Positions 1 through 57,880 of a DNA stretch of 64,000 nucleotides are shown piece by piece. A program made the position numbers and the translations under genes. Origin of the DNA: Nannochloris sp. 'desiccata' (lineage: Eukaryota; Chlorophyta; Trebouxiophyceae; Chlorellales; Chlorellaceae); contig JAGTXX020000003.1 of NCBI GenBank assembly GCA_019044685.2, positions 434,001-498,000 on the forward strand, read 5' to 3'. The notes under the pieces are model-generated. The model did not search any database, was not told the DNA's origin, and saw only the letters and a list, made by a program, of their open reading frames with translations. Within the stretch, counting starts at the first letter, position 1; each line of letters opens with the position of its first letter.

Positions 1-63
1 ACCAGACAGGTAGAGGATATCCGAGAACACGGTCTTTCGTCTTGGACTGCTTTCCTTTGGCAC
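1..63 (-). other. First codons of the exon after PCP13 (end of NRPS or next domain)
   Basis: After a 101-nt intron (64-164) with phase-1 junctions, the frame continues with a basic linker rich in K (GAKGKQSKTKDR) and then VLGYPLPVW at the window edge. This is not the usual start of a C domain (NEWPDASRPLSANQEQMW here). It could be the approach to a membrane or other terminal domain. Only 21 residues are visible. Confidence 0.5.
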
Positions 64-3000
64 CTTCAAATTCGCAAATAAGATAAATGAAAAAATGGAG
101 AGGTGAGAAGAAGTAAAATGAAAATTAGTGAGCACATAATAAAACGAAAGTGTTATAAAATTACCTCCAGAAGTGCTGTTCTTTTGGCGCAGAGCATCAC
201 AGAGTGTCTTCACCATTGGATTGCCATATACTTCCCTCACATCGAGGTTGACACCAAGCTCTCTACGCATGCGACCTACAATCAATGAAACATGCAAAGA
301 AGAGGCCCCCAGATCGAAAATATCTGTATCCAACGGAATATTGGCATTCTGTTCTAATCCAATCACTTCCAGGATAATAGAGATCACTGTATTATCATTT
401 GTATCCAAAGCAAAGGAACCATCAGCGGTAGCAACGGATCCTGTCGGAGCAGACCAATCAGGAGCTGGAAGAGTACGCACATCGATCTTACCACCAGGAA
501 GAAGAGGGAAGCTATCCAAGGCAACAATAACAGTAGGAATCATAGCAGGCACCAACAAGGTACGGCAGTGAGCTCTCACAGTAGCGGGCTCTACTGTTGC
601 TGGAGTAACATATCCTACCAAGCGCTTCTGGCCCGAAGGGTCCATCAGGGCGGTAGCTACAGACTGTGTGACGCCAGGAGTGCTCTCAAGAGCTCCTTCA
701 ACTTCGCCAAGCTCGATGCGTACACCAGTGATCTTCACCTGACGGTCAATGCGGCCAAGGAAATCAATGGTGCCATCGTTGCGCCACCGAACCAAGTCAC
801 CAGTGCGGTACGCCTTCTCATAGTAAGGAGCAAGCGATGAGTCCACACGACCAGAAACAAGGTCAAGGCAAGGATTAGGAACGAACTTCTCAGCAGTAAG
901 GTCGGGTCGGCCAGCATACCCAAGAGCCAAGCGAGGACCACTCAGCAAAAGCTCACCAGGCACGCCAACAGGCACAGCACGAAGCTCAGAGTCGACCACA
1001 TAGCAGTGAAGGTTATACACGGGGCGACCAATAGAAATGAATTCGATAGAAGGAGGGCAGAACAGGGCTGTCGCGGTAATGGTGGCTTCTGTAGGGCCGT
1101 AAACATTGACTACACAACAGCCGGGAATCTTCTCCTTAAACATTGCGATCACTTCTCTCGGCAATTGCTCGCCTCCCAACATGCAGAATCTCAAACTGCT
1201 ACACTTCTTGACATGCTTGCCCTGGAACTGGACAAGGGCCAGAGAGGGAGTGCTATTGAAATGCGTCACGCGCTGTTGATTGATAAGGCCAGTCACGTAG
1301 TCACCATCAGCATGGCCATCAGGCTTGGCAATCACCAGACCCGCACCAACAACCAAGGGCGTCAGAGCTTGCATCAAATGAGGATCGAAATTAATGGTGA
1401 TTGTCAACAGAGAAGCATCATCAGGGCCCATCGAGTAGAGTTCAGCTGTCTCTAGCACATGGTCCACGATGGCGCGATGAGGAATCATCACACCCTTGGG
1501 TCTGCCAGTAGAGCCAGAAGTGAAAATAATATAAGCAGGGTCGTCAGGCCCAGGAGAACGCAAGGCTGCAGATCCTTTGCCAGATGATAATGTACCATCA
1601 GCAGTACTAAGATCAACAACAGACACTCCTGAAGACACCATAGCACGAGCACGCTCAGCATACTCGCTGACTGTCAGCACAACAACTGCACTGGCGTCTC
1701 CCAAGTACACCTCCAAGCGATCATCAGGGTAGGAAGGATCGCAAGGAAGGTACACACCACCAGCCTTAAACACAGCCAAGATGCTGATGAGTAACTCAAA
1801 GGACCTGTCAAGCATCACACCGACTACCACACCAGGGCTCACGCCAAGGGAGGCAAGGCGATCAGCAAGAGCTGACACACGGTTGGAAACCTCCCCATAA
1901 GCCAACCACTCGCCCTCGTAGCAGAGGCAGCGGCTCTGAGGAGACGCAGCAGCAATGGCATCAAACGCATCGTGTACAAGAGGGGCAGAGAGATAAGCTG
2001 GGCGCTCCTCTCCCATAGAAAATCGTGCTGCTTCCAAAGCATCATGAGGACCTAACATGTTGCCTGCAAGGGCAGGGGCGCGAACATTGTTGACCAGCTG
2101 CTTAAGGACCATAACGAAACTGCTTAAGAGACGCTGCATAGTAATTGTATCAAACATCTCAGCCATGAAATCAGCTGAGACCTCTGCGCCGCTCAGAGTA
2201 AGAGACAAATCCAGCTTGGCGTGTTCAAGCTGAGAGTAGGCAGAAAATGGTTTCATTTTCAATGATTTTTCGCTCTGGGCAGGCCCACTCTTGGTGCCCC
2301 CAGGCAAGTACTGGAACAAGACCTGGAACAGAGGGTTGGCATTAGGCACACGAGAGACACCTGAAGCAGCAACGACCTCCTCAATGGGAAGAAGAGAGTG
2401 GTCAAGGGCAGCAAGCGTAGCAGTACTTGCCTCAAGAACCATGTCGGCAAAGCTCGCACCTTCAACAGCAACGCAACGCACTGGGAGCGTGTTGATGAAG
2501 TAACCAACCAGGCCGTGAGTCTCCTGGCGGTCGCGACCAGCGACAGGCACGCCAACTACCAAATCGTCTTGGCCCGTGTACCGCAGCAGCACTGCTTGAA
2601 GGCCAGCAAGCAACACAGCCTGCATGTTCACGCGCAAGGAACGAGCAACAGACTCGAGCTCGCCCAACAAGCCTTCCGGTAACGAGGAACGCGCAACACC
2701 AGCCAAGAAGGTGGGCTTGGAGGGACGAGGACGGTCCTGAGGAAGCTGTGCCATAGCGGGGGCGCCAGCCAAGGTCTTTCTCCAGAAAGCACGAAGGGAC
2801 TCGCCAGAAGCACCAGTCAGCTGCTCACGCTGCCAAGCAGCATAGTCGCCATACTGAATGGGTAGAGGAGACCACTCAGGAGATTTGCCGTTTAATGCTG
2901 CATCGTAAGCAGCCGACAACTCGCGCCAAAAGATGCCTTGAGACCAAGCATCACCAACAGCGTGGTGCATCGTTAAAGCAAGCACAGCACCACTGCCGCC

Positions 3001-6000
3001 AGAGAAGTCGCGCACAAGCAATCTAGCACGCACAAGAGGCTCAGTCTCAAGGTCAAACGCACGAGCTGCCTCGGCAGCAACCTCGCGAACAACCTCCTCC
3101 TCAGAAGATGCCTGCACAACCTGCACAGGCACGTGGAACTCAGCAGCAGGCAACACAGCGCCAACAATGCTGCCGTCCCTCTGGCGCTTGAATACGGTGC
3201 GCAGCACCTCATGGCGAGCAGCAACAGAGTCAAGAGCAGCACCGAGAAGCTTGGCATCAGGGGCATGATCAAAGAAATCAAGGGCGCTGGGCATGTTGTA
3301 AGCGCTGGCACCGGCAAGGCTACTCAGCAGCCACATCTGCTCCTGGTTGGCAGACAGAGGGCGTGAAGCGTCAGGCCACTCGTTGCAGGGGATAGGGGCA
3401 GCCGAGGCGCCATCCTCAGCGCCGCCACCATCAGCAATCAACTGTGTCAAGGCAGCAGCAACACGCCGGGCAGTGCGCTCAGAATGCACAAGGGTGGCAG
3501 GCACAGTAGCAATGTGCAGGGCTTTCTGCAACAAGGCAGCAGCGCGGAACACCTGCAGGGAGGTACCACCAGCAGCGAAGAAATCAGAGAGCACGCTGAC
3601 CTCCTCAGCAGGGCGGCCCAAGACCTCAGCAAACACGCTCTGAACAGCCATTTCAATGTCATCCACAGGAGCAACGTACTCCTCTTCACCAGCGCCAGTC
3701 CAATCTGGAGCTGGAAGAGCACGGACGTCAACCTTGCCGTTGGGCAGAAGAGGGAAGGCATTCAAAGCCACAACAACACTGGGCACCATAGCAGCCACAA
3801 GCAAGCCTCGACAGTGGGCTGTTATGGCAACAGTGTCTACAGTGCCTGGTGTGATGTAGCCAACAAGACGTTGCTTGCCTGTGGGGTCAGCGACAGCAGC
3901 TGCAACAGCCCCTGTCACTCCTTCAGCTCCCTCTAATGCGGCTTCAACTTCACCAAGCTCGATGCGTACACCAGTGATCTTCACCTGACGGTCAATACGC
4001 CCAAGGAAATCAATGGTGCCGTCGTTGCGCCACCGAACCAAGTCACCAGTGCGGTACGCCTTCTCGTAGTAAGGAGCAAGCGATGAGTCCACACGACCAG
4101 ACACAAGGTCAAGGCAAGGATTAGGAACGAACTTCTCAGCAGTAAGGTCGGGTTGGCCAGCATACCCAAGAGCCAAGCGAGGACCACTCAGCAAAAGCTC
4201 ACCCGGCACGCCAACAGGCACAGGACGAAGCTCAGAATCGACCACATAGCAGTGAAGGTTAGCATCTGGCTTGCCAATTACTACGGATTCGAATCCACGG
4301 TGGAAGGTGTAGTGCACAGCAACTGCCGTCACCTCAGTTGGCCCATAGGTGTTGATGGGGTTGAGGTTGGGAAAGACGTCGTGCATTTGCCGGACAACAT
4401 CAGCTGGGACACTCTCGCCTCCAACACCCCAGGCGCGCATTGGAGAGTAGCTAGGACTGCTACGCTGCTTAAGCTCTGAAACATACTCGCGTGCAAGAGT
4501 AGGCACGGTAAACATGAACCCAGTGATGCTCTGCTCAAGAATCAAATCCACCATATAAGGTGGGTCAAAGTGACCCTCAGGCTTGGCGATCACAAGGCTG
4601 GCACCCACAGTCAAAGGGGGAAAGACCTGAAGCACGTGGGCATCAAAGCTGATGGTGTTACTGAACATTATATTGTCAGCGTTGGCTGTAGCAGGGGAAG
4701 GAAAGGAAGTGAAAACGATTAGAAAATTGGGCTAAAGGCAGAAAAAGAAGCAAGTTAATACAGGGGGCATATCTAAGGTTGGAACAGACACTTACTGAGC
4801 TCATACATATCGACCAACCAAGGCATCAGATCCCTCAAACCACGATGGGCTACTACGACACCCTTGGGCCTGCCAGTAGAACCAGAAGTGAAAATAATAT
4901 AAGCAGGGTCGTCTGGACCAAGCTGGCGAAGAGGCACGTTGCCTACAGCAGCAGGAGTAACCGCAGCATCTGTAGTAATATCCAGAACAGGAATGCCATC
5001 GCCAACCATAGACTTGGCACGCTCAGCATGCTTGAGAGACGCGAGCACGAGGAACGCACTGCCATCTTCCAAATACACCGACAAGCGATCGTCGGGGTAA
5101 GCCGGGTCACAAGGCAAGTAGCAACCACCAGCCTTAAGTACTGAAAGAATGCTAATAACCAAATCGAATGATCGGTCCATCATAATACCTACTACGACAC
5201 CAGGACCTACACCCAGAGAGGCCAAGCGAGCGGCACCTGCAGCCACCCGCTGAGCTACCTCACCATAGTTCAACCATTCTCCCTCAAAGCACAGGCAACG
5301 CTTACTGGGATATGATGCTGCAATGACATCAAATGAATCATGCACCAGAGGTGCAGAAAGATAGTGTGTCCGCTGCTCACCACATGAAACAGCCATCACT
5401 TCTTCAAGGGCATCACCAGAGAGTTTTACCTGATCCTTTAGAGGCGCTTGAACATCAGTGGCTGCACTTTCCAATATAGAGTAAAGGCGGGAAATCATTC
5501 GCTTCACAGTAGGCATTGCGAACAAGTTGCCATCACTATGTAAAGCCATTTGAAGACCTTCTGAAGAAGGAACAAGACCAAGAGTAATATCTGTTGGAGC
5601 TGCAGGGGGAGCAATAAGGAATGCTTCCATTTTAAGAGCTCCGTCGTCAGCAGGAGCAGCCGCAGCATTATTAGCAGCACTCGGATCCATCCATTCTGCA
5701 TGAAAGATAGGGGTAGTATAGAAAATGTTATAGAAAAGCGTATTAGTAAGTGAGATACTCTAAGACAATGGCATAATAAACCAGGCTGGCTGTAAGGACT
5801 TACCTTCTTCGTCCCAGGTGATTGATGCTTGCCAAGCGGGGGTGCGCCCAGGAGCTCTGGGGAAGTCTGAGACCCTAATAACATCCTGAAGAGGCAAGAT
5901 ACTGTGCTCAATAGCACCAGTAAGAGTTTTCATCTCACGCTGTGCTAAAGTAGCAAAGGTATCGCCCTCCTCAAGACGGTTGCGCAATAGCAGCATGCGC

Positions 6001-9000
6001 AAGAAGTAGCCAATCAAGTCTTCAGTGCCAGGAGGTCGAATTGAATAACTTGAGGCAATGACCACATCATCGCTCGCACTAAATTCGCAGAGCATCAACC
6101 TAAATGCAGCTAAACAGAGACCATACAGAGATATCTTCAGCTTTGCAGCTACTGCCTTGAGCTTAGATACCATCTCAGCCTTCACCAACACGCCTAGGAC
6201 AGCAGGATCTCTTCCACCGTCATCGCTCCGAGGGTAATCAAACGGCAACTGAATAATAGGAGTTGCATACTGAAGCCGAGACTTCCAATAGGAAACAAGT
6301 TTATTATGATCATCACTACCTGGCTCCAATTGTTTACGTTCCCAAGCAGCAAAGTCACTGTATTGAACTGGCAATTCTGCCAACATCGTTTTTTCTCCAG
6401 GAGTAGTAATAGATGTATATAAAGCCATTATTTCGCCCCAAACTTTACTCATAGACCATCCATCCATAAGAATATGGTGCATCAAAATCATAACAACATT
6501 ATGACTAGGTGCAACTGGTGCAATCGATGCGCGTAAGAATGGTGGTGAAGACAGGTCGAATGCAACAGCACACTCCTTTTCCATTGCCACCCTAATCTCG
6601 TCTTGAGACATTCCAGACTGCAAATTAGACAGAATACAAGTATTTGCTAACCTCAAGTCAATCTAATGATAGCTATTAATATTATTATTCAGTTACTCGT
6701 ACCTCTAGTATCCTAATAGGAACATCAGTTACTGAGCTGACGTAGACTTCAACACCATTGGGGCCATGCGTGAATCCACAGCGGAAGATCTCTTGGCGCT
6801 GAATCAGTTGATTGAGGGCTGATTGGAAGGAAGACATATCGAGCTGGCCATACACATTGACGCACGATGCCTCATTCAACTGCATAGGAATAAGTTTAAT
6901 AGGTTAGTAAAATAGTTTCAAGCATTTTTATTAAGTTGCCAAAAGACCTTATCCTTACCTCTAATGCGGTAGGATCCATCAAATACGACATATAAAGAGA
7001 CTCCTGACCAGATGATGCTGGCCTGCTATTATCTTTCCATTCATTTTTAACGACGAAGGAAGCCTCCAGGCCATCCCCGTCGAGAAGTTTCTTCTGTTTG
7101 ACAACCTCCGCAACCTCCCTAACACACGGTGCACGAATAATTTCGTTGGCTGCAACGTGCACGGTAACAGCCTCCATAAGAATTGTGGAGATCTGCATCG
7201 CTTGAAGAGATGTGCCACCAATTGAGAAGAGATCAGCAAGCACGCTCACCTCCTCAGCAGGGCGGCCCAAGACCTCGGCAAATACTCGCTGAACAGCAAT
7301 TTCAATGTCATCCACAGGAGCAACGTACTCCTCTTCACCAGCACCAGACCAATCAGGAGCTGGAAGAGCACGAACGTCAATCTTGCCACCTGGTAACAAA
7401 GGGAAACTCTCCAAAGCAACAACAACACTGGGCACCATAGCTGGAACCAACAAAGTGCGGCAATGAGCAATCACCGCTGCAGGCTCTACTGTGGCTGGAG
7501 TAACATATCCTACCAAGCGCTTCTGACCAGACGCATCAGGCAAAGCAGTAGCTACAGACTGTGTGACGCCAGGAGTGCTCTCAAGAGCTCCTTCAACTTC
7601 ACCAAGCTCGATGCGTACACCAGTGATCTTCACCTGTCGGTCAATGCGGCCAAGGAAATCAATGGTGCCATCGTTGCGCCACCGAACCAAGTCACCAGTG
7701 CGGTACGCCTTCTCGTAGTAAGGAGCAAGCGACGAGTCCACACGACCAGAAACAAGGTCAAGGCAAGGATTAGGAACGAACTTCTCAGCAGTAAGGTCGG
7801 GTCGGCCAGCATACCCAAGAGCCAAGCGAGGACCACTCAGCAAAAGCTCACCCGGCACGCCAACAGGCACAGCACGAAGCTCAGAGTCGACCACATAGCA
7901 GTGAAGGTTATACACGGGGCGACCAATAGAAATGAATTCGATAGAAGGAGGGCAGAACAGGGCTGTCGCGGTAATGGTGGCTTCTGTGGGGCCATAAACA
8001 TTGTACACACGGCAACCAGGGATCTGCAAAATAGTTTAGAAATAAAGAAGAAACCGGGCATTTAGAGCAAGTTGCAGGGACACTTATATATGCTCCATGC
8101 AATGAAATTGCGCAAAGAAACATAGCACGATCGAAAATGAAATGTGGTGACTGACCTTGTCCTCAAACAGAGTAATCACTTCTCGTGGCAACTGCTCACC
8201 ACCAAACATCACAACCCTCAGAGCAGTGCACTCCTTCGCATACTTGCCCTGGAACTGGACAAGGGCCAGAGAAGGAGTGCTCACAAAGTGGGTCACGCGC
8301 TGTTGGCTGATAAGACCAGTCACGTAGTCACCATCAGCATGGCCATCAGGCTTGGCAATCACCAGACCCGCACCAACAACCAAGGGCGTCAGAGCTTGCA
8401 TCAAATGAGGATCGAAATTAATGGTGATTGTCAACAGAGAAGCATCATCAGGGCCCATCGAGTAGAGTTCAGCTGTCTCTAGCACATGGTCCACGATGGC
8501 GCGATGAGGAATCATCACACCCTTGGGTCTGCCAGTAGAGCCAGAAGTGAAAATAATATAAGCAGGGTCGTCAGGCCCAGGAGAACGCAAGGCTGCAGAT
8601 CCTTTGCCAGATGATACTGTACCATCAGCAGTACTAAGATCAACAACAGACACTCCTGAAGACACCATAGCACGAGCACGCTCAGCATACTCGCTGATTG
8701 TCAGCACAACAACTGCACTGGCGTCTCCCAAGTACACCTCCAAGCGATCATCAGGGTAGGAAGGATCGCAAGGAAGGTACACACCACCAGCCTTAAACAC
8801 AGCCAAGATGCTGATGAGTAACTCAAAGGACCTGTCAAGCATCACACCGACTACCACACCAGGGCTCACGCCAAGGGAGGCAAGGCGATCAGCAAGAGCT
8901 GACACACGGTTGGAAACCTCCCCATAAGCCAACCACTTGCCCTCGTAGCAGAGGCAGCGGCTCTGAGGAGACGCAGCAGCAATGGCATCAAACGCATCGT

Positions 9001-39000: not shown

Positions 39001-42000
39001 GGGGCGACCAATAGAAATGAACTCGATAGAAGGAGGGCAGAACAGGGCTGTCGCGGTAATGGTGGCTTCTGTGGGGCCATAAACATTGTACACACGGCAA
39101 CCAGGGATCTGCAAAATAGTTTAGAAATAAAGAAGAAACCGGGCATTTAGAGCAAGTTGCAGGGACACTTATATATGCTCCATGCAATGAAATTGCGCAA
39201 AGAAACATAGCACGATTGAAAATGGATGTGGTGACTGACCTTGTCCTCAAACAGAGTAATCACTTCTCGTGGCAACTGCTCACCACCAAACATCACAACC
39301 CTCAGAGCGGTACACTCGCTCGCATACTTGCCCTGGAACTGGACAAGGGCCAGAGAAGGTGTGCTCACAAAGTGGGTGACGCGCTGTTGGCTGATAAGAC
39401 CAGTCACGTAGTCACCATCAGCATGGCCATCAGGCTTGGCAATCACCAGACCCGCACCAACAACCAAGGGCGTCAGAGCTTGCATCAAATGAGGATCGAA
39501 ATTAATGGTGATTGTCAACAGTGAAGCATCATCAGGGCCCATCGAGTAGAGTTCAGCTGTCTCTAGCACGTGGTCCAGGATGGCGCGATGAGGAATCATC
39601 ACACCCTTGGGTCTGCCAGTAGAGCCAGAAGTGAAAATAATATAAGCAGGGTCGTCAGGCCCAGGAGAACGCAAGGCTGCAGATCCTTTGCCAGATGATA
39701 CTGTACCATCAGCAGTACTAAGATCAACAACAGACACTCCTGAAGACACCATAGCACGAGCACGCTCAGCATACTCGCTGACTGTCAGCACAACAACTGC
39801 ACTGGCGTCTTCCAAGTACACCTCCAAGCGATCATCAGGGTAGGAAGGATCGCAAGGAAGGTACACACCACCAGCCTTAAACACAGCCAAGATGCTGATG
39901 AGTAACTCAAAGGACCTGTCAAGCATCACACCGACTACCACACCAGGGCTCACGCCAAGGGAGGCAAGGCGATCAGCAAGAGCTGACACACGGTTGGAAA
40001 CCTCCCCATAAGCCAACCACTCGCCCTCGTAGCAGAGGCAGCGGCTCTGAGGAGACGCGGCAGCAATGGCATCAAACGCATCGTGTACAAGAGGGGCAGA
40101 GAGATAAGCTGGGCGCTCCTCTCCCATAGAAATTTCAGCCAATTCTTGAGCATCTCCTGCAGCCAGCATGCTATTGCCCAAGGCGGGAGCACTAATATTC
40201 CCAATTAAGTGATCTAGCACGAATACGAAACTATTTAACAGCCTCTCCATAGTGACTTTATTAAACATTTCATTCATGTACTCTGCTTGGATACTCTCTC
40301 CCGTCATTATGAGAGAGAGATCTAGTTTAGCATGTTGAAGACGTCCCAAATTGACATACGCCTCGCCCCGAACACCTTGAACTCTGAAATCTTTTGAAGC
40401 AGTGCCATCAGGCAAGTACTGGAACAGCACCTGGAACAAAGGGTTGGCATTAGGCACGCGAGAGACACCTGAAGCAGCAACGACCTCCTCAATGGGAAGA
40501 AGAGAGTGGTCAAGGGCAGCAAGCGTAGCAGTACTTGCCTCAAGAACCATGTCGGCAAAGCTCGCACCTTCAACAGCAACGCAACGCACTGGGAGCGTGT
40601 TAATGAAGTAACCAACCAAGCCGTGAGTCTCCTGGCGGTCGCGACCAGCGACAGGAACGCCAACTACCAAATCGTCTTGGCCCGTGTACCGCAGCAGCAC
40701 TGCTTGAAGGCCAGCAAGCAACACAGCCTGCATGTTCACACGCAAGGAACGAGCAACAGACTCGAGCTTGCCAAGCAAGCCTTTCGGTAACGAGGAACGC
40801 GCAACACCAGCCAAGAAGGTGGGCTTGGAGGGACGAGGACGGTCCTGAGGAAGCTGTGCCATAGCGGGGGCCCCAGCCAAGGTCTTTCTCCAGAAAGCAC
40901 GAAGCGACTCGCCAGAAGCACCAGTCAGCTGGTCACGCTGCCAAGCAGCATAGTCGCCATACTGAATGGGTAGAGGAGACCACTCAGGAGATTTGCCGTT
41001 TAATGCTGCATCGTAAGCAGCCGACAACTCGCGCCAAAAAATGCCTTGAGACCAAGCATCACCAACAGCGTGGTGCATCGTTAAAGCAAGCACAGCACCG
41101 GCACCGCCAGAGAAGTCACGCACAAGCAATCTCGCACGCACAAGAGGCTCAGTCTCAAGGTCAAACGCACGAGCTGCCTCGGCAGCAACCTCGCGAACAA
41201 CCTCCTCCTCAGAAGATGCCTGCACAACCTGCACAGGCACGTGGAACTCAGCAGCAGACAACACAGCGCCAACAATGCTGCCGTCCCTCTGGCGCTTGAA
41301 TACGGTCCGCAGCACCTCATGGCGAGCGGCAACAGAGTCAAGAGCAGCACCGAGAAGCTTGGCATCAGGGGCATGATCAAAGAAATCAAGGGCGCTGGGC
41401 ATGTTGTAAGCGCTGGCACCGGCAAGGCTACTCAGCAGCCACATCTGCTCCTGGTTGGCAGACAGAGGGCGTGAAGCGTCAGGCCACTCGTTGCAGGGGA
41501 TAGGGGCAGCCGAGGCGCCATCCTCAGCGCCGCCACCATCAGCAATCAACTGTGTCAAGGCAGCAGCAACACGCCGGGCAGTGCGCTCAGAATGCACAAG
41601 GGTGGCAGGCACAGTAGCAATGTGCAGGGCTTTCTGCAACAAGGCAGCAGCGCGGAACACCTGCAGCGAGGTACCGCCAGCAGCGAAGAAATCAGAAAGC
41701 ACGCTGACCTCCTCAGCAGGGCGGCCCAAGACCTCAGCAAACACGCTCTGAACAGCAATTTCAATGTCATCCACAGGAGCAACGTACTCTTCTTCACCAG
41801 CGCCAGACCAATCTGGAGCTGGAAGAGCACGGACGTCAACCTTGCCGTTGGGCAGAAGAGGGAAGGCATTCAAAGCCACAACAACACTGGGCACCATAGC
41901 AGCCACAAGCAAGCCTCGACAGTGGGCTGATATGGCAACAGTGTCTACAGTGCCTGGTGTGATGTAGCCAACAAGACGTTGCTTGCCTGTGGGGTCAGCG

Positions 42001-45000
42001 ACAGCAGCTGCAACAGCCCCTGTCACTCCTTCAGCTCCCTCTAATGCGGCTTCAACTTCACCAAGCTCGATGCGTACACCAGTGATCTTCACCTGACGGT
42101 CAATACGCCCAAGGAAATCAATGGTGCCGTCGTTGCGCCACCGAACCAAGTCACCAGTGCGGTACGCCTTCTCGTAATAAGGAGCAAGTGATGAGTCCAC
42201 ACGACCAGACACAAGGTCAAGGCAAGGATTAGGAACGAACTTCTCAGCAGTAAGGTCGGGTCGGCCAGCATACCCAAGAGCCAAGCGAGGACCACTCAGC
42301 AAAAGCTCACCCGGCACGCCAACAGGCACAGCACGAAGCTCAGAATCGACAATATACACGTGCGTGTTGGGATCAGGTTTGCCAATTACCACGGATTCAA
42401 ACTTACGGGGGAAGGGGTGGTGCACAGTGACAGCAGTGACTTCAGTTGGACCATACACGTTCATGATACAAGCTTGCGGGAAAACATCTTGCATATCACG
42501 GAACAGCTCTGCTGGCACATTTTCACCACCCACGCTCCAAGATTTCATAAGAGGGTAAGGAGTATAGCCACTACGGCGAAGCTCATTCACATACTCGCGT
42601 GCCTGTAGGAAAGAAAGAAAAATGAATCATATATAGCGAAAAGGAAATACCCCGAGAGGAATTAAAAATTGGCACTAATAACAGCAGAGCGTAAAATATA
42701 ATCTTACCAAGGTTGGCACTGAGAAGATGAACTCATTCACTCTATGTTGCATTAATAGATTCACGATATATGAAGGATCCAGATGACCTTTTGATTCGGC
42801 CAGCACCAAGGAAGCTCCAACAATCAAAGGAGGGAACATCTGGAGCGGGAAATGAAAACAAATGTTAATCAAATTTACTAAAAGCATGATTAAACGTTAC
42901 TGTGCAGGCTTTGTAAACACACTGTACCTGAAGAACATGAGCATCAAAACTAATGGTGCTCGTCAGGATGGCCACGTCGTCAGCAACTGCAATTGCAACA
43001 GAATGGAAAGAGGGCAAAAACCAGTGAGAAAATGAAGAAATGAATTTAGAAACAAGCGGGAAAAAGAAAGTAATTCGGTAGACCAGCAACTACTGCGTAC
43101 CAATCTTGTGCCTATCAACGAGCCAAGGAATCAGATCCCTCAAACCACGGTGGGCTATGACAACACCCTTGGGTCGGCCGGTAGAGCCAGAAGTAAAAAT
43201 GATGTAGGCAGGGTCATCAGGACCAGGAGAACGCAAGGCGCTGCTACTGCCAACATCAGCAGCAATGCTCACATCTACCACAGGCACATCATCGCCGACC
43301 ATATCCTTGGCACGCACAAGGTGCTGCGGGTTTGCAAGCAGCAGTGCTGCCTTGGCGTCTTCCAAATACACCTCCAAGCGATCATCGGGGTATGAAGGAT
43401 CGCACGGCAAGTAGCAACCACCAGCCTTCAATACAGCCATAATACTGATGACCAGATCAAAGTCACGCTCTAGCAACAGACCAACGACAACACCAGGACC
43501 TACACCCAGAGAAGACAAGCGAGCGGCACCTGCAGCCACCCGCTGAGCTACCTCACCATAGCTCAACCATTCTCCCTCAAAGCATAGGCAACGCTTGTTG
43601 GGACATGAAGCGGCAATGGCATCAAATGCATCATGTACCAGAGGTGCAGAAACGTACTCAGGGCGTTGTTCAGCCATGCTAAACTTTTGTATTATTGTGT
43701 GCTCTGCATCAGGCATCACGCTCAAACCGTTGATGGTCAAAGCTTTCAAGTCAGATGCTTGGCAAAGCTGATGCAACAAGATAGTATACTGCTGACTCCA
43801 TCTCTGCACAGTATCAGCATCAAAAAGCGCAGTACAATACTCCATACGGCCTGCAAATAAATGACATATTTAAAAGAAAGGATGTGGTTACTTGACCTCA
43901 TACTTGAAAAGATCACACAGGCGATACTCGCACTTACCAAGAAGGCCAGCATCTCCCTCATCAAAAAGCTCCAAAGTGAGATCAAATTTGGCAGTTACAC
44001 CACTACTAAGACGCTGTTGTTTCATTTCCAAAGCATCGTCTAAAGAACGAGTGCTATCTAAAGCTCGTTCTTGAAGCACAAACATTAATTGAAAGATGGG
44101 AGCATAGCTAGTGCTTCTCTCAAGGCGAACGTGCTCAACAATCTGCATAAAAAAGGCAGAAACCCATTGAGTAGAGATTAGATATGTACAAATAGCAAGA
44201 ACTAGATTTTTTATCAAGTAATTTTACCTCTGCGAATGGCACCGATGCATTATCCAAGCCATCGAAAGTTGCCGTCTTCACCCTGCACCGTGATGAGGAC
44301 AAGTAAACTAGTTTATTTCATGAAGTAGAATACGTAGAACAAAATCAAATGAAGCAATGCTCAAAAACTATACCTTTCTAACAGCTCTGCCACAGTCGGA
44401 TTTCCAGAAAGATCTGCAACCAATGCAAGAGGGTTGACAAAATAACCAATAGTGCCTTCAAGAGATCGTTGACCGCGACCAGCTGCCGGGGACCCAACAG
44501 CAAAACGCTCCATTCCAGTGAGCTTGTACATATGAATCTGGAATGCAGCCAACGTAGTCATGAATAAAGTTGCGCCATGAGCCTGTGAGAACCGTTTTAA
44601 CCCAGCAAGGATGTCTGCAGAGACACGGAATGTGTGGAGAGCACCATCGTATTTTTGTACCACAGGGCGTTGATGATCAGGCTGCAGTAAGAGTGGTTCA
44701 ATACCAGTAAGCTGCTGCTTCCAATAGTTTAAATGCACTTGATACGTCTCAGAAGTAGATTGCTCTCGTTGCCAACGAGCATAGGCAGTGTACGGGACCT
44801 CTACGCTAGGTAAAGGCACAGTATCATTTACGCTGCAGCTGCTGCGATACATCGCTGCCAGCTCATTCTGAATAATGTTCATACTCCAACCATCAGTAGC
44901 AATATGGTGTACTATTAAAAGAAGCACGTGACAAGATGAGAGAGTGTACAGTTGGGCGCGGATAGGCAGTTCTTTGAATAAATTAAAGGGCATAAAGGAC

Positions 45001-48000
45001 TCTTGGACCAACATTTTTTCAAATTCACCGGAATCGATACCAAGCTCTGTGTGGCTCAGATCTACTTGCTGTAAAGTAATTTGAGGCGAAGAATGGATAC
45101 TAGCTACCCAGACGCCACCACGAGTAGTATACGTAGTTCGCAGAGCATCATGTCGTGCAACCAGAGACTGCATACCATGAAATAAATATATATATATAAA
45201 TTTTAAATAAAAGTAGTAGTTGGAAAGTACCTAGAATAGAGAAAGCATAGAGAACCAATTCCAGTTGAAAACATCAACTTTTACCTCGATGCATTTGTGT
45301 AAACGCTCAATATCTACGGAGCCAAACAGTCCCAAAATAAGAGGCTGATTGTAGAATCCACTCTTTGGATCCCTACTATGCAGCATCAACATCTGCTCCT
45401 GACCAAAAGACAGAGTAGGTGGGGACGCGACAGGAGCAGTGGCATAGTCAAGAGGGGAAGGTGCTTGAGATGGTACTGGTGAGGGGAGGCTCTCTATTGC
45501 CTTGCACAGAGCTCTCACAGAACGATGCTGCAGGACAAAAGCACCGCTGCATGACTTGGCACTGTGCTCTTGAACCATAAAAGCAATGCGAGCTGCCAGA
45601 ATGGAGGTGCCTCCCAATTCAAAAAAGTCATCAAGCACACCAATATTCAGAAGACCAAGCACCTGTAGGAAACACGGAGAATTTAAATTTGGTTACGTTA
45701 TCTCCTAAAATAGTACGACGAATTGAATATTTATTAGAATAACAATATCAACTGCGCTATTTTACCTTTTGCCAGATTTGCACGGTTGCTTCTTCCAGCG
45801 CTGATTCAGGAGGCACAAAATTTAAAGACGAGATAATACGGGCATTCAGCTGCAGTAATGAATACAGCAATTCAGTTAGAGGTATAATAAATTATATTAG
45901 AAAGTATAGAATTAATACGCGACTCAATAAGTATATGCTATGTCTCACCAATGAAGCCTCCAGGGTGGGCTCAATACCAGCAGCGGTGAGCTTGGCCAGA
46001 GTAGCCATGCGTTGAACCTTGCCAGTTGACGTCTTGGGCAGAATACTATCATCATTGAGAACAAAAATAATAGTAGGAACCATATAAACAGGGAGGCACC
46101 TTTTGCATGAAGCCAAGACTGCATAGGCAAGGCTCTCCAGCACTTCAAAGCCTGAACAAAAAGAAGAAGTAACGATTGATTAATGTTAATTAACTACAGC
46201 TACCACTAGATGTAATAATATCAAAAATACATACACAATCTCGTAATGCTTACCACTAAATCCATGTCTTCTAACGACAGCAACAGCAACTTGTTCTCCA
46301 TAAGTAGCATCTGCCATGGGAAAAGCGACAGCTTGATGGACCGCCTCCACCAGCAATGCTGCATCTTCAACCTCTGCTGGAGAGACCTTTTCACCACCAC
46401 GGTTAATCATTTCTTTCTTACGACCAGTCAACACCAACCACGGACCTGCAGAAAGGGAAGAAGAATGATTCCAAGAATTTGCATTACGCTGAACACTTAC
46501 CTCCGCTGGCCCCTTGTTAGAATGAGACAAGTATCCAAGATCTCCAGTTCTAAACCACCTATCGCCAAAGAAGCTCTCACGATTTGCTTCTGGGTTATCA
46601 ACATACCCAGGGGTAATACTGGGACCCCTCAGGCATACTTCCCCTGCCTCACCTGGAGGCATCTCTTTGCCGCCGTCGTCACAGATTTTAATTTCAAGAC
46701 TGGCAGAGATGGCAACACCAGCAGAGCCAGGAGGAGTAACAATGCCAGGAAGGGTAGAGACACAGCCACCTCCTGTCTCTGTCATTCCATACGAATCGAC
46801 AAGGGGCACGCCCAGAAGAGCTTCCAATTGCTCCACATCTTTGGAGTTCATGGCGGCAGCACCAGAGCGCACAAAGCGCAATGCCGAAGAAAGACCACTC
46901 TGATTTAAGAGAGAGAAAAAAGTTCGATCGAAGTCAGAATAATTTAATTTAATGATAACAAAATTAAAAGACCGTACCTGGGTTTCAAAGAGGCCTTTGT
47001 GCTCTAAGAGCGCCTTGAATATGGCAGGCACAGCAGTGAACCAAGTCACCTTGTGCTTGCGAAGCAGCTGGGGAAAGGCCAAAGGATCAAATACAGGGTG
47101 GATTACTACGCATCCACCAGCAGCCAATGTTGATAAGAGGCCAATGACGATACCTGCAACGTGGAAAAAAGGCAGCACGTGCAGAGCTACGTCCTTTGAT
47201 GACAGAGCGTAGGTCTTGATCAGCCCTTCCAAATTGGCTGCAACAGCTCCGTGCGTGATAGGTACAAGCTTAGGACGGCTTGTAGTACCGCTAGTATGCA
47301 GCAAGAAGGCTACATCTGTAGGCTTTGCAGCAATTGGAGCTGGGCCCCTGCATAATCAAAATATATTCGAAGGTTTGTAGGTCAGGCAGGCGACGCTATG
47401 ATGAGCAATGTGATATGAGCAATAGGTTACAGAATCATAGATTTGAAGATATTAGCACTCGTAAACGGCACTTTTTTCAATACAAAATAGAGAGATATCT
47501 TTCATTATGTACCTTTCAGGAATAGGCTGAGGGGTGATAGTTGCTTGACCAACAGGCACAACTTTGATGGCTTTCGTGCCAGGCTCGTATGGTTGAAAGC
47601 GCCAGGCAGGGATGCCAAGGCTCTCAGCAGCTTCTAATGCATAAGTACTATCAGCTTCAGTGACAGGAGGTACCTGCACGTTTAGGTTTCAATTAAAATT
47701 TGAAATTTGTGATTGCTCGAGGTTGGACAAGTCGATCTTCTTTCATGAAAATAGGCAAAAGGCCACCTACCAGCAGTAATTTTGCACCAGTCTCCTTAAG
47801 AATTTCTTCGAAACGATTTTTTGATGTGACAGGGTCCATCGGGGCACAGGTGAGCCCCGAGGTTGCCAGACCCACCAATGCCATGGCCGTGTCAAATGAA
47901 TGAGGAGAGACGAGTCCTATCACATCACCTGAGACCACGCCGGCTGTCTGGAGCTTCTCAGTAAGACTGATGCATGATTGGTGCAAGTCTCCGAAGGAAA

Positions 48001-48091
48001 TCGACAACTCTGGTCCAGCTCCCCGGGCAAGGACCAGAGCACGATCATTCTCAATTGGTGACCCAATTTGTAAAAGGCCAGTGAGCGACAT
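1..48091 (-). CDS. Giant multimodular non-ribosomal peptide synthetase, 3' end beyond window
   Basis: Template-directed peptide assembly enzyme: a loading A-PCP followed by 13 C-A-PCP modules. The ATG is at 48091, and no in-frame stop remains once introns are removed. I traced 37 coding segments from 48091 down to 63..1. Donor/acceptor phases match at every junction, except a 55-nt intron-like stretch (46446-46500) that must be read through. Coding length in the window is about 44.2 kb (about 14,700 residues, well over a megadalton). Every module shows A-domain core motifs (FTSGSTGRPKG, YGPTE, RTGDL, GKxDVR), a carrier serine (GGTSL or similar) and a condensation HHxxxD motif. Module by module details are given in separate entries. 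It is divergently transcribed from an ABCB exporter. Near-identical modules mean assembly collapse or expansion should be kept in mind. Whether it is expressed as one polypeptide is inferred from the uninterrupted frame. Confidence 0.9.
180..3384 (-). other. NRPS module 13: C13-A13(alpha variant)-PCP13
   Basis: Lies entirely in exon 4685-165. C13 has HHAVGDAWS. A13 is class alpha but lacks the intron all other alpha domains have. A patch of about 130 bp around that position (about 1110-1260) is diverged, and THFNSTPS replaces THFVSTPS, so my hand-aligned pocket is DPMNMGVIT. PCP13 is unlike all others: FDLGASSLHVSLIVGRMRRELG, with no GGTSL. It therefore probably interacts with a different downstream domain from the usual C. 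Confidence 0.78.
3385..5345 (-). repeat. Near-identical segment repeated at about 17120-19082
   Basis: The end of module 12 (A12 with intron, PCP12) repeats module 8 at an offset of about 13,736 bp with only scattered single-base differences. Similarity stops abruptly at the C/A linker (about 5345 and 19082). The 13.7-kb period equals four modules. Confidence 0.75.
3385..7049 (-). other. NRPS module 12: C12 (second C type)-A12(gamma)-PCP12
   Basis: Exons: tail of 8023-6959, 6879-6703, 6617-5804, 5695-4796, and the start of 4685-165. C12 is the second-type C domain (MHHILMDGWS, YSIRPPGTE). It shares exon layout with C8, but its N-terminal half is well diverged from C8 while the C-terminal part (about 5810-6090) is almost identical. 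A12 is class gamma (pocket DALFGGTAVK). From about 5345 down to 3385 the DNA is nearly identical to module 8 (about 19082-17120), intron included. Confidence 0.8.
7050..10404 (-). other. NRPS module 11: C11-A11(alpha)-PCP11
   Basis: Rest of exon 11398-8156 and exon 8023-6959. C11 has HHAVGDAWS. A11 is class alpha (pocket DPMVMGVIT), intron 8024-8155. PCP11 is distinctive (LFSIGGTSLQAMQISTILMEAV). It precedes the second-type C12, as PCP7 precedes C8, which suggests carrier and downstream C domain have evolved together. Confidence 0.8.
8024..8155 (-). repeat. Alpha-module intron family (four copies)
   Basis: Introns at 8024-8155 (A11), 14736-14867 (A9), 21826-21956 (A7) and 39109-39239 (A2), donor GTCAGT. 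Two variants exist. A9 and A11 share one form. A2 and A7 share another that differs near the donor (21930-21950 against 8130-8152). A13 has no intron here. Confidence 0.8.
10405..13744 (-). other. NRPS module 10: C10-A10(beta)-PCP10
   Basis: Rest of exon 14735-11502 and the first part of exon 11398-8156. C10 has HHAVGDAWS, with its own C/A linker patch at about 12530-12650. A10 is class beta like A5 (pocket DPTVMCGVI), with the matching intron 11399-11501. PCP10 reads FFAGGGTSLQVF. Confidence 0.8.
13745..17119 (-). other. NRPS module 9: C9-A9(alpha)-PCP9
   Basis: Rest of exon 18421-14868 and the first part of 14735-11502. C9 has HHAVGDAWS. A9 is class alpha (pocket DPMVMGVIT), intron 14736-14867. 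From about 14090 to 16500 the DNA is nearly identical to module 11 (about 7380-9790), intron included. PCP9 is standard. Confidence 0.8.
17120..20849 (-). other. NRPS module 8: C8 (second C type)-A8(gamma)-PCP8
   Basis: Exons: tail of 21825-20764, 20641-20465, 20389-19573, 19416-18532, and the start of 18421-14868. C8 belongs to a second C-domain type with its own introns: SSGQESLYMSFL start, MHHILMDGWS, then an unusual YSIRPPGTE-FGYFLRM stretch where VPVAGR-TH-LVGYF is usual. C12 is its only relative here. A8 is class gamma (pocket DALFGGTAVK), and its intron 18422-18531 is identical to those of A4 and A12. PCP8 is standard. Confidence 0.8.
20850..24204 (-). other. NRPS module 7: C7-A7(alpha)-PCP7
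   Basis: Rest of exon 24817-21957 and exon 21825-20764. C7 keeps MHHSVSDGWS and is diverged at DNA level from the common C type. A7 is class alpha (pocket DPMVMGVIT) and switches back to near-identity with the other alpha domains from about 22720 leftwards. Its intron (21826-21956) matches the A2 intron variant. PCP7 is distinctive (FYAAGGTSLQVFRAVALLADQIG); it precedes the unusual C8. Confidence 0.8.
24205..27859 (-). other. NRPS module 6: C6-A6(epsilon)-PCP6, divergent and intron-rich
   Basis: End of exon 28853-27679, then exons 27565-26269, 26169-25206, 25105-24941 and the start of 24817-21957. C6 has LHHAAADGWS. A6 is the only class epsilon domain: ICFDVHALQIFAPL, GMIFTVPF, MWGMGGDA, NSYGPTEGNVV. 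The hand-aligned pocket is DVLFGGSVVK. Most of C6 and A6 have no near-identical copy elsewhere in the window. This is the only module with an intron between C motifs near its start, an intron inside the A1-A2 region, and two introns around the A6-A7 motifs. PCP6 is FFAAGGTSLQVFRVTALLRK. Confidence 0.8.
27578..27592. repeat. A homopolymer in NRPS intron
   Basis: Run of about 15-16 A in the intron 27566-27678 of module 6. It is a likely site of length variation or sequencing error but lies outside the coding sequence. Confidence 0.6.
27860..31199 (-). other. NRPS module 5: C5-A5(beta)-PCP5
   Basis: Rest of exon 32504-28957 and most of exon 28853-27679. C5 has HHAVGDAWS. A5 is class beta: INFDPHITQMFMPL, THFVSTPS, VMLCGEPLP, YNGYGPTEASVIA. 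The hand-aligned pocket is DPTVMCGVI plus lysine. The intron 28854-28956 closely matches the A10 intron. The C5/A5 linker differs from that of module 10 although the A domain itself is nearly identical. PCP5 is standard. Confidence 0.8.
28854..28956 (-). repeat. Beta-module intron, two near-identical copies
   Basis: Introns at 28854-28956 (A5) and 11399-11501 (A10), donor GTAAGT, acceptor TCTACAG. They are the same length and differ at only a few bases. Confidence 0.75.
31200..34564 (-). other. NRPS module 4: C4-A4(gamma)-PCP4
   Basis: Rest of exon 35678-32615 and the first part of exon 32504-28957. C4 is of the common HHAVGDAWS type. A4 is class gamma: ISFDAHVLQVFPPL, GFMFTVPT, AWGVGGES, NTYGPTEVTAV. 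The hand-aligned pocket is DALFGGTAVK. The single intron 32505-32614 sits just before the FSNTISFDAH motif and is identical to the introns of A8 and A12. PCP4 is standard. Confidence 0.8.
32505..32614 (-). repeat. Gamma-module intron, identical in three copies
   Basis: The 110-nt intron before the FSNTISFDAH motif of A4. The introns of A8 (18422-18531) and A12 (4686-4795) read identically base for base in my comparison. Donor GTAAGT, acceptor CTACAG. Identity of non-coding sequence shows recent copying. Confidence 0.85.
34565..38109 (-). other. NRPS module 3: C3-A3(delta)-PCP3
   Basis: Remainder of exon 39108-36177, then small exons 36062-36004 and 35915-35784, then the first part of 35678-32615. 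C3 has HHAVGDAWS. A3 is class delta, like A1, with the same pocket reading (DALFSGVAVK) and the same three introns at the same positions and nearly the same sequence. The end of C3 and start of A3 (about 36590-37240) are virtually identical to the corresponding part of module 4 (about 33040-33690). PCP3 is standard (FFAAGGTSLQVF). Confidence 0.8.
35679..36176 (-). repeat. Delta-module block of three introns and two small exons, duplicated
   Basis: This block in A3 (introns 36063-36176, 35916-36003, 35679-35783) recurs almost unchanged in A1 (42987-43100, 42840-42927, 42603-42707). Exon and intron bases are equally conserved. Confidence 0.8.
38110..41489 (-). other. NRPS module 2: C2-A2(alpha)-PCP2
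   Basis: Occupies the remainder of exon 42602-39240 and the start of exon 39108-36177. C2 carries HHAVGDAWS (D then A, where DG is usual). The C2/A2 linker at about 40130-40415 is unique to this module. A2 is class alpha: INFDPHLMQAL, THFVSTPS, MFGGEQLP, YNVYGPTEATIT. The hand-aligned pocket is DPMVMGVIT plus the GK lysine. One intron (39109-39239) lies just before the IPGC-VYNVYGPTE stretch. PCP2 has FFAAGGTSLQVF. Confidence 0.8.
41490..45430 (-). other. NRPS module 1: C1-A1(delta)-PCP1
   Basis: Exons: rest of 45662-45285, 45167-44374, 44282-44228, 44142-43938, 43850-43101, 42986-42928, 42839-42708, and the first part of 42602-39240. C1 has VHHIATDGWS and is intron-rich and clearly different from the later C domains, as expected for a domain accepting the loaded starter. 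A1 belongs to class delta (ISFDAHVLQMF, SWSVGGEN, MNVYGPTEVTAV). My hand alignment to GrsA gives the pocket DALFSGVAVK, which matches no code I know. PCP1 has FFAAGGTSLQVF. Three short introns cut A1 around the A4-A5 motifs, and the same three occur in A3. Confidence 0.8.
45440..48091 (-). other. NRPS loading module: acyl-activating adenylation domain plus PCP0
   Basis: Exons 48091-47771, 47673-47513, 47347-46978, 46899-46254, 46151-45949, 45849-45766 and the first part of 45662-45285. The adenylation domain resembles acyl/aryl-CoA synthetases (4-coumarate/oxalate-CoA ligase type). Visible motifs are HTSGTTSRPKLVP, LPFFHVAG, YGMTETGG, RTGDLGYL, LTGRKKEMINRGGEKVSP and the C-terminal PKTSTGKVQR with its catalytic lysine. 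The aspartate that binds the alpha-amino group in amino-acid A domains (FDxxxx motif) is absent; PFFHVAG stands in its place. This points to a carboxylic acid without an alpha-amine as starter. The carrier domain follows, with LGGTSILAARI holding the phosphopantetheine serine. The substrate identity is not readable. Confidence 0.8.
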
Positions 48092-48429
48092 ATGTGCTAT
48101 AGATTCGGATTTGTCTTATTGTCAAATGGGGGCTGGGTTTGCGGGTTTTGTACAAGAGCGGCTGTCGGCGACCTTGATCGCCACCGATGCAGGCCACCCA
48201 ATAAGCAAACAATAGTCCAGCAAGAACACGGAGAGCAATAAAGTTATAGCAATTTGTGTAATTTGAAAGAATCACTAATACTTTACCGTTTTATGGCGTT
48301 TAAAACGGCTTAGCAACGGTTTGCGTGAGCTAATAGTAAATCTTTCTTTGAATCTTGCACGCCGCGAGGCCAAAAGTGAGATCGACACCTTATCAATCAC
48401 AAGTTTATGTCTTTTTCTGACATCTGAAG
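48092..48429. promoter_or_regulatory. Divergent promoter region between NRPS and ABC transporter
   Basis: The 338 bp between the two ATG codons must hold both 5' UTRs and both promoters. It contains a perfect 8-bp inverted repeat (48286-48308) and several AACGG/CCGTT motifs of the kind bound by MYB factors. I see no convincing TATA box. Shared control of both genes is inference from the arrangement. Confidence 0.55.
48286..48308. repeat. Perfect inverted repeat CCGTTTTA-7-TAAAACGG
   Basis: Two 8-bp arms (48286-48293 and 48301-48308) separated by TGGCGTT, near the middle of the shared promoter. Another AACGG follows a few bases to the right. It could be an operator-like site for a dimeric factor or a pair of MYB-type sites, but it may also be chance. 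Confidence 0.5.
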
Positions 48430-57076: not shown

Positions 57077-57880
57077 TTAAAAATTCAATAATAAGATTGC
57101 ATCAGGGCCGCCATCCCCCGACAGAAACCCAGTACTTAGAAAATGAAGACAAACACAAGACGCAGCTGCTATAATAACTGACGTTTTCAACGCATCTTTA
57201 AAATGCTGTGCTTCTATTTCCATATCTAATCGAGCACCTCCAAATTTAAGAAATTTCGACATATCTAAGTAGGCAGCATAGAAAGAACGCCAGATCAACA
57301 TTAGCCCCAAAATTTGGGCAGCAGAGATAAAAGGCTCTCCAGGCAACGATGCAGCTAATGGCAGTGCTCTTCCCCAACCTTCAGTACCTACTAACGCGCC
57401 ATCTTCTGCTGCAGTGACGAGTACTAATTGCGCTGCGGCTATGCACATTGAAGCGATCCACACGCGGCAGGTAGCAACAAGGGCAGATCTGACATCGGCA
57501 GAGGCTTCGTTGGTGTACGCGCCCAGTAAGATTCCTGCTGCAGCCCACGTTCCGCAGATTGTGACTACAAAGCCAAAAAATTCTTCAAAGCGGATGGGGT
57601 TGAAGTGAAGTGGGGCGAGCCAGCCTTCGAATTGCGGAGAGAGGGCAATGCCAATGATTTGTTTGTAGGTGGCAAAGCTGACTTGTGCGAGCATGTCGCC
57701 TACGAGAAGCTCGACATTCTCTACACCTCCACTACCGTTGCTTCTCTTTTGCTGCTGACATAGAATAGAAAGTCTCCTGGTAAAATTAGATCGATAATGA
57801 GATCGAGAATTGTTAGAGTTTAAATTATGAATTAAAGATCTTTGGTGCAGTGGTAACGCACACAGCGCTATGCCAACCAT
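57077..57880 (-). CDS. Probable plastid multi-pass membrane protein, possibly DUF3054-like
   Basis: Single-exon protein of 267 residues. The first about 45 residues are rich in S, N and R with few acids, which suits a plastid transit peptide. Then come a segment LLVGDMLAQVSFATYKQIIG and about four hydrophobic stretches: FGFVVTICGTWAAAGILLGA, a CRVWIASMCIAAAQLVLV block, AQILGLMLIWRSFYAAYL, and TSVIIAAASCVCLHFLSTGF. The VGD...GTWAAAGILLGAY pattern reminds me of DUF3054 membrane proteins of plants and cyanobacteria, but I am not certain. No enzymatic motif is visible. Convergent with dymeclin. Confidence 0.7.
   Translation of the reverse strand: MVGIALCALPLHQRSLIHNLNSNNSRSHYRSNFTRRLSILCQQQKRSNGSGGVENVELLVGDMLAQVSFATYKQIIGIALSPQFEGWLAPLHFNPIRFEEFFGFVVTICGTWAAAGILLGAYTNEASADVRSALVATCRVWIASMCIAAAQLVLVTAAEDGALVGTEGWGRALPLAASLPGEPFISAAQILGLMLIWRSFYAAYLDMSKFLKFGGARLDMEIEAQHFKDALKTSVIIAAASCVCLHFLSTGFLSGDGGPDAILLLNF

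What the first reader, a model, noticed from the sequence alone, without database searches (positions are those of the whole stretch)
1..48091. A single NRPS gene with at least 13 extension modules in a eukaryotic (probably green algal) genome
The frame can be followed through 37 spliced segments with consistent phases and no stop, giving about 14,700 residues and still open at the window edge. NRPS genes of this size are rare in any eukaryote outside fungi, and spliceosomal introns inside most modules show it is a true nuclear gene and not bacterial contamination. The product would be an acyl-capped peptide of 13 or more residues.
Basis: partly seen in the sequence, partly recalled or inferred. 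Interest (0 to 1): 0.92.

Follow-up and report, generated by a model that had tools for sequence, protein, structure and literature searches.

The report
Giant thirteen-module peptide synthetase, green alga
A green alga carries one huge nuclear gene, cut by 39 introns, that appears to encode a 1.7-megadalton assembly line for a 13-residue peptide, and its modules have swapped their amino-acid-choosing cores with one another.

Summary
Confirmed and extended. On the minus strand, from window 48091 to 4,137 bases beyond the window start, lies one intron-rich NRPS gene: 40 exons, 15,947 residues, about 1.71 MDa, all 39 introns GT-AG, no stop (model set by hand). Order: acyl ligase, carrier, exactly 13 C-A-T modules, a membrane/hexapeptide domain related to the polylysine-synthetase tail (below that family's cut-off), then a thioester reductase.

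The organism is almost surely Nannochloris sp. 'desiccata': a public protein of that alga equals residues 6388-7884 of a second, convergent six-module NRPS next door, 1497 of 1497.

New: the modules are mosaics. In chosen pairs, modules with different A-cores share C domains at dS 0.03-0.10 while their A-cores are near saturation; modules with the same A-core (dS 0-0.05) can have C domains at dS about 0.9-3; introns inside the cores are 97-100% identical within a class. This is cassette exchange with borders like those described in bacteria. Product, expression, module count in reads and single-transcript status are untested.

The parts
1..48091 (-). NRPS gene A, part in the window (exons 1-35 and part of 36 of 40); continues to C3:429863, 4,137 bases beyond the window start
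   Evidence: manual splice model, no stop, 39 GT-AG introns
45972..48091 (-). N-terminal acyl/AMP ligase (loading domain), residues about 1-560
   Evidence: AMP-binding; best solved relatives are oxalate-CoA ligases 5ie0, 6qjz
45446..45957 (-). loading carrier protein (FFELGGTS), approximate limits
   Evidence: motif at residue 580
41466..45416 (-). module 1 C-A-T, A-core class alpha (all module limits are approximate)
38092..41465 (-). module 2 C-A-T, A-core class beta
34542..38091 (-). module 3 C-A-T, A-core class alpha
31177..34541 (-). module 4 C-A-T, A-core class gamma
27843..31176 (-). module 5 C-A-T, A-core class delta
24183..27842 (-). module 6 C-A-T, A-core class epsilon; the only one of its class
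20839..24182 (-). module 7 C-A-T, A-core class beta
17094..20838 (-). module 8 C-A-T, A-core class gamma, distinct C domain
13719..17093 (-). module 9 C-A-T, A-core class beta
10382..13718 (-). module 10 C-A-T, A-core class delta
7034..10381 (-). module 11 C-A-T, A-core class beta
3358..7033 (-). module 12 C-A-T, A-core class gamma, C domain nearest to module 8's within gene A
165..3357 (-). module 13 C-A-T, A-core a beta variant without the beta intron; terminal carrier GASSL
1..63 (-). first coding bases of exon 36, which leads into the C-terminal membrane/hexapeptide domain (continues outside the window, then thioester reductase)
   Evidence: TIGR02353 261.5 bits, TIGR01746 250.2 bits on the tail
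49063..53535 (+). divergent ABC transporter, three large open frames; possible export partner
   Evidence: ABC_membrane and ABC_tran, E 9e-41 to 3e-12; link to the NRPS inferred from position only

Best explanation
Gene A encodes a single 1.71-MDa NRPS of a trebouxiophyte alga. Shown by sequence: ligase, carrier, 13 C-A-T modules, membrane/hexapeptide domain, reductase. Inferred: the ligase loads a carboxylic acid on the first carrier; 13 condensations add amino acids in the class order alpha-beta-alpha-gamma-delta-epsilon-beta-gamma-beta-delta-beta-gamma-beta'; no separate epimerisation domain was noticed; the reductase frees the chain as an aldehyde or alcohol; the tail holds the enzyme on a membrane, and a neighbouring ABC transporter exports the product. 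The gene evolves by module duplication plus repeated conversion between modules: much of the C, A6-A8 and carrier 'framework' is homogenised while A-core cassettes (about motif A1/A2 to A5/A6, with their introns) sit in different modules, which rewrites the peptide sequence.
For: 40 exons, 39 GT-AG introns, 15,947 residues, no stop; 38 of 39 introns are needed for an open frame. HHxxxD, A3, A5, A8 and carrier serine in 13 of 13 modules. Two PF01648 (phosphopantetheinyl transferase) matches over the cut-off in the genome, able in principle to charge the carriers. Reductase over its cut-off (250.2 vs 213.35 bits), with Y and K of a YxxxK motif kept in A and B. Reciprocal discordance of dS between C and A-core in 11 of the 14 module pairs that I chose out of 78, and the same pattern in sliding windows of 17 chosen pairs. 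A-core pairs of different class show dN 0.37-0.48 against dS 1.3-2.6: purifying selection (7 pairs). A metagenomic relative, P0121, keeps the gamma A-core at 97% (153 residues) while its C is at most 85%.
Against: No RNA or metabolite data. The A-domain codes were read by hand from recalled positions and match no substrate that I can name. The ligase's acyl substrate is unknown. The membrane domain scores below its family's cut-off, so its role is a guess; simple hydropathy also lights up helices inside the A domains. The structure model of part of the tail is only moderate (pLDDT 66). The public annotation starts a separate 1497-residue protein inside gene B, so this kind of locus has been read as several genes. 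Recombination was not tested with a dedicated program.
Confidence: 0.85

Rival explanations
1. The module number is an assembly error: near-identical modules were collapsed or multiplied, so the true gene has more or fewer modules and some mosaic borders are chimeric joins.
For: Eight carrier-plus-C segments are 85.7-99.3% identical in protein and a 601-base probe finds eight copies at 95-100% (itself included), the kind of repeat that misassembles. No reads were available.
Against: Module pairs differ at scattered synonymous sites in C in all 14 pairs compared. The contig is only 1,061 bases shorter than the 1,642,977-base contig that encodes the public Nannochloris protein P0241, less than one module of about 3.3 kb (weak, since other changes could offset). 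The metagenomic protein P0121 has a gamma core followed by a C nearest module 13's, the order of modules 12-13 here.
Confidence: 0.12
2. The locus makes several shorter proteins from separate transcripts that act together.
For: A public protein of the sister gene B begins at its residue 6388; no RNA evidence here.
Against: No stop in 47,841 coding bases; exons run across module borders, for example 42602-39240 and 18421-14868.
Confidence: 0.12
3. Bacterial DNA in the assembly, not an algal gene.
For: Large NRPSs are mostly bacterial (general knowledge), and the named relatives of the modules in the listing are bacterial.
Against: 38 of 39 introns are needed for an open frame; neighbours are dymeclin and a HAD-G3P dehydrogenase fusion; rows with organism names reach at most 37% identity among the 120 listed of 7,699; a public Nannochloris protein has the tail of gene B with two introns removed.
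Confidence: 0.01
4. A decaying gene that makes no product.
For: Recently duplicated repeats can be neutral; no expression data.
Against: No stop in 15,947 residues and dN well below dS between A-core classes.
Confidence: 0.04

Closest known systems
Fungal peptaibol synthetases (recalled, not fetched)
   Same: Single giant gene, acyl start, more than ten modules in the larger ones, reductase at the end
   Different: Green alga, 39 introns, ligase at the start, membrane/hexapeptide domain before the reductase; amino acids unknown
Pls/PosA family, epsilon-polylysine synthetases (TIGR02353; PMC7179176, passages read)
   Same: Tail after the last carrier with hydrophobic helices and hexapeptide repeats; 261.5 bits
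   Different: Below the 423.1-bit cut-off; fused to 13 C-A-T modules and a reductase; Pls is described as A-T, six membrane helices and three tandem domains
Bacterial A-domain recombination (wollamide/desotamide, PMC9205934, passages read)
   Same: Exchange of the A-domain piece between about motif A2 and A5/A6 with the rest conserved
   Different: Nuclear gene, many modules of one gene, introns carried along, framework homogenised
Algal NRPSs of the 2015 survey (PMC4661987, section 5 and passages read)
   Same: Eukaryotic algae, two of them trebouxiophyte relatives with one NRPS of one C domain each (Chlorella variabilis, Coccomyxa subellipsoidea)
   Different: The largest counted there had 3 C domains and 490 kDa; here 13 and about 1,710 kDa
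Metagenomic proteins P0121-P0132, P0137, P0149
   Same: 57-87% identical, same C-A-T kind, probably from related algae
   Different: Fragments without organism names; full genes not seen

Membership tests
Multimodular NRPS | Repeated C-A-T modules with active-site motifs | tested here: met
   13 of 13 modules with HHxxxD, A3, A5, A8 and carrier serine; eight have HHxxxDA, not HHxxxDG
Multimodular NRPS | Dedicated release domain | tested here: met
   TIGR01746 thioester reductase 250.2 bits, cut-off 213.35
Multimodular NRPS | Carrier-activating PPTase in the genome | tested here: met
   two PF01648 matches over the cut-off; which of them serves the NRPS is unknown
Multimodular NRPS | Peptide product | not testable with these tools
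   no metabolite data
Pls/PosA (TIGR02353) | Score over the curated cut-off 423.1 | tested here: not met
   261.5 bits for the tail of gene A; exon-wise in the genome, 18 matches, none over the cut-off
Pls/PosA (TIGR02353) | A-T followed directly by the tail, no C domain | tested here: not met
   13 C domains upstream
Peptaibol synthetase | Reductase after many modules | tested here: met
Peptaibol synthetase | Fungal gene | tested here: not met
   green alga
Peptaibol synthetase | Aib-specific A domains | not tested
   codes only read by hand, no comparison made
Fatty-acyl-AMP ligase (FAAL) loading | FAAL rather than acyl-CoA-ligase type | tested here: inconclusive
   best PDB relatives are oxalate-CoA ligases; best NCBIfam FadD7, 319.9 bits, cut-off 650; FAAL insertion not examined
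A-subdomain recombination | Swapped piece between about A2 and A5/A6 | tested here: met
   identity switches between columns 360 and 560 on the left (borders vary) and near 800-840 on the right; A1 at 509, A3 at 641, A5 at 784, A7 at 883 (17 chosen pairs)

The most novel reading that the evidence does not exclude
Gene A is a eukaryotic assembly line under concerted evolution: gene conversion inside one nuclear gene keeps the framework uniform, spreads intron-bearing substrate cassettes between modules, and so makes strains of one alga differ in peptide sequence and module number, a built-in diversity generator.
Probability: 0.4. Interest if true: 0.88.

Novelty: new variant of a known kind. 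Interest (0 to 1): 0.78.

Why it matters
It shows that a small (21.5-Mb) green algal genome can hold a 13-module, 1.7-MDa NRPS with ordinary nuclear introns, several times larger than any NRPS counted in the one algal survey that I could read in detail (3 C domains at most). The order ligase, 13 modules, membrane hexapeptide domain, reductase is one that I did not find elsewhere within my searches: among 120 listed of 181 relatives of the tail, a precomputed reductase domain (PF07993) occurs only in the nine nearest rows, two of them named Nannochloris, seven without an organism name, and four bacterial reductase loci examined of 24 found have carrier and reductase or reductase alone, without the hexapeptide part. 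The mosaic gives a natural experiment in module and A-core exchange inside a eukaryote, where introns mark each transfer; it makes testable whether gene conversion rewrites a natural product between strains.

Tried and rejected
Rejected: bacterial contamination (introns); 'at least 13' (exactly 13 in this assembly); a thioesterase as the release domain (a reductase matches the end; no search for a thioesterase was run). Automatic gene finding with a home-made Markov/splice model: one search joined everything into one gene of 184 exons and was discarded; one search split gene A near its 3' end, missed two 59-base exons and used some false splice sites; the manual model replaced it. The same script on C5 and C9 gave rough models only, so module counts there (about 3 and 2) are approximate. 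I examined four of the 24 (L020, L024, L027, L042): three have carrier plus reductase, one reductase alone, none a hexapeptide or TIGR02353 match. RNA families: none at gathering score in the window. MbtH helper: none found. C domains with a dual epimerase-type signature: not seen by eye in the seven modules of gene A printed; no subtype model was run. Literature: all 10 searches used; no listed title or abstract start is about this gene.
Full report
What was checked. The window is G000:C3:434001-498000 of a 21,550,525-base genome in 18 contigs. I fetched 40 kb on the left and 10 kb on the right, read the minus-strand frames and set a splice model by hand.

The gene. Gene A runs on the minus strand from an ATG at window 48091, just after in-frame stops, to a stop at C3:429863, that is 4,137 bases beyond the window start. 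It has 40 exons, 39 introns (75-286 bases, median 108), all GT-AG, and 15,947 codons without a stop; calculated mass 1,710.6 kDa. If kept, 38 of 39 introns would shift the frame or bring a stop; the exception is the 78-base intron 46977-46900. One GTAAGT..CAG candidate of about 55 bases inside exon 4 was left in because removing it breaks the frame (sequence). The acceptor before exon 36 is AAG, unusual beside the C/T-AG of the others. Exons are 52% GC, introns 33%. The automatic runs disagreed with this model: one search ended gene A at C3:433891. The hand model instead uses a donor there; the counterpart of that junction in gene B is cut in the public Nannochloris protein P0241, which equals gene B residues 6388-7884 over 1497 of 1497 positions and so supports two splice cuts of gene B. 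P0243, a metagenomic relative at 79% identity, runs over the exon 39-40 junction (residue 15,797) without a break. The other cuts rest on frame, splice signals and domain continuity.

Domains. Residues 1-560 are an AMP ligase; its best solved relatives are oxalate-CoA ligases (5ie0, 1.2e-72) and its best NCBIfam model is FadD7, 319.9 bits, far below the cut-off of 650. A carrier follows at residue 580. Then come 13 modules, each with HHxxxD, A3, A5, A8 and a carrier serine; eight C domains read HHAVGDA. The tail matches TIGR02353 at 261.5 bits (cut-off 423.1) and TIGR01746 thioester reductase at 250.2 bits (cut-off 213.35). Hydropathy (19-residue mean, threshold 1.7) gives ten windows in eight groups in the tail of gene A and about seven groups in that of gene B; the three strongest windows of gene A (2.42-2.86) lie in the tail, but windows over 1.7 also occur in the ligase and the A domains, so the threshold is not specific. 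A model of a 792-residue public protein matching residues 15014-15798 has moderate confidence (pLDDT 66.0, pTM 0.52, 32 sequences) and, as I read its strand and helix list, shows long helices, two beta-helix-like strand series and a Rossmann-like end; Foldseek's best matches are NRPS/PKS reductase domains (E 6.7e-11), with gamma-carbonic-anhydrase-type folds lower down, all over part of the model (TM-score by query length 0.20 or less in the 50 rows shown).

Neighbourhood. Gene B, C3:402991-427913, plus strand, converges on gene A tail to tail: 10 exons, 7,884 residues, six A domains and the same tail. Its first C domain has NH instead of HH. Further NRPS genes lie on C5 and C9, and pieces of the same tail are found at all four loci, none over the family's cut-off. 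ABC transporters stand beside gene A (window 49063-53535) and upstream of gene B. Two PF01648 matches and no MbtH were found.

Organism. A dymeclin gene in the window has its nearest named relatives in trebouxiophytes such as Micractinium, Coccomyxa, Elliptochloris and Myrmecia. P0241 and P0245 are named Nannochloris sp. 'desiccata' and come from contigs whose longest are 1,642,977 and 823,710 bases; contigs C3 and C5 here are 1,641,916 and 823,134. Table 1 of PMC12636532 gives N. desiccata UTEX 2526 as 21.6 Mb, 45.0% GC (passage). Which strain or haplotype G000 is, I cannot tell; the 18S search did not complete.

Mosaic modules. A domains fall in five classes: alpha 1, 3; beta 2, 7, 9, 11 and a variant 13; gamma 4, 8, 12; delta 5, 10; epsilon 6. 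Within alpha, gamma, delta and the four main beta members protein identity is 97.8-100%; module 13 is 88.3-88.9% to beta. Segments from the preceding carrier through C of modules 2, 3, 4, 5, 9, 10, 11, 13 are 85.7-99.3% identical whatever their A class, while those of 1, 6, 7, 8, 12 differ. Of 78 module pairs I took 14 for dS. Seven pairs of different class with a shared C domain (2-3, 2-4, 2-5, 3-5, 4-5, 9-10, 10-11) have dS 0.03-0.10 in C and 1.3-2.6 in the A-core. Four pairs of one class with different C domains (1-3, 4-8, 8-12, 2-7) have dS 0-0.05 in the A-core and 0.9-3.2 in C. Three pairs (2-9, 9-11, 5-10) are close in both, though 2-9 and 5-10 differ in the C-A linker and 9-11 in the carrier. 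Introns inside the cores are 97.1-100% identical within a class in the six intron groups compared. Sliding windows of 17 chosen pairs place the left border anywhere from the end of C (column 360) to just before A2 (column 560) and the right border after A5, with smaller patches elsewhere, for example columns 280-360 in modules 8 and 12. PMC9205934 (passages) describes an exchanged piece between motif A2 and motifs A5/A6 in Streptomyces. A 601-base C-domain probe finds eight places at 95-100% identity, all in gene A (itself included); the other eight places, in modules 6 and 7 of gene A, in gene B and on C5, are at 78% or less. Homogenised C domains have third-position GC 0.52-0.55, the five others 0.40-0.43, as GC-biased conversion would give; the copies are not independent, so this is a hint. 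Codon usage of gene A correlates less with neighbouring genes (r 0.53) than that of gene B (0.80).

Codes. Read by hand with positions recalled from GrsA-PheA: alpha DALFSGVAVK, beta DPMVMGVITK (module 13 DPMNMGVITK), gamma DALFGGTAVK, delta DPTVMCGVIK, epsilon DVLFGGSVVK (sequences). I can assign no amino acid with confidence; the aspartate that holds the alpha-amino group is present in all 13.

Relatives. One large exon against 5.8 billion proteins gave 7,699 matches; of the 120 listed, 14 are metagenomic proteins without organism names at 57-87% identity, and the other 106 are at 31-37%. The length filter hides full-length giants, so this does not show that none is annotated. P0121 is 97% identical to the gamma core (over 153 residues) but at most 85% in C and 88% in the A-tail/carrier part: the core is better kept than the framework, in this one protein. 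Its order, gamma core then a C nearest module 13's, is that of modules 12-13. The tail search listed 120 of 181 rows; the nine nearest carry PF07993, eight of them with PF00132; none of the other 111 lists PF07993.

Verdict. Shown: gene, order of domains, module mosaic. Inferred: loading, peptide length, reductive release, membrane location, export. Not tested: expression, single transcript, product, module count in reads.

Noticed in passing
C3:402991-427913 (outside the window, L009-L012): Second NRPS gene, convergent with gene A: 10 exons, 7,884 residues, six modules, same tail; its first C domain has NHCVMDG instead of HHxxxDG.
   Followed up: yes
L014-L015, L018-L019 (C5) and L016-L017 (C9): Two smaller NRPS genes, about three and two modules by rough models, with pieces of the same membrane/hexapeptide tail.
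   Followed up: partly
window 1-45416, homogenised segments: Third-position GC is 0.52-0.55 and third-position A about 0.07 in the eight homogenised C domains, against 0.40-0.43 and about 0.2 in the five others; may mark GC-biased gene conversion.
   Followed up: partly
window 48092-49062: About 970 bases between gene A and the first large open frame of the divergent ABC transporter: a likely shared promoter region.
   Followed up: no
C3:398834-401834 (L009): ABC transporter with membrane and ATP-binding domains directly upstream of gene B.
   Followed up: partly
window 61620-63605: Fusion of a HAD hydrolase with glycerol-3-phosphate dehydrogenase, both Pfam parts over cut-off.
   Followed up: no
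window 57077-57946 and L013:4478-5728: Open frames of 289 and 417 residues with no Pfam match at E 0.001.
   Followed up: no
P0323: A chytrid (Spizellomyces punctatus) protein carries a Pls-like tail with an adenylation domain, so such tails occur in other eukaryotes.
   Followed up: no
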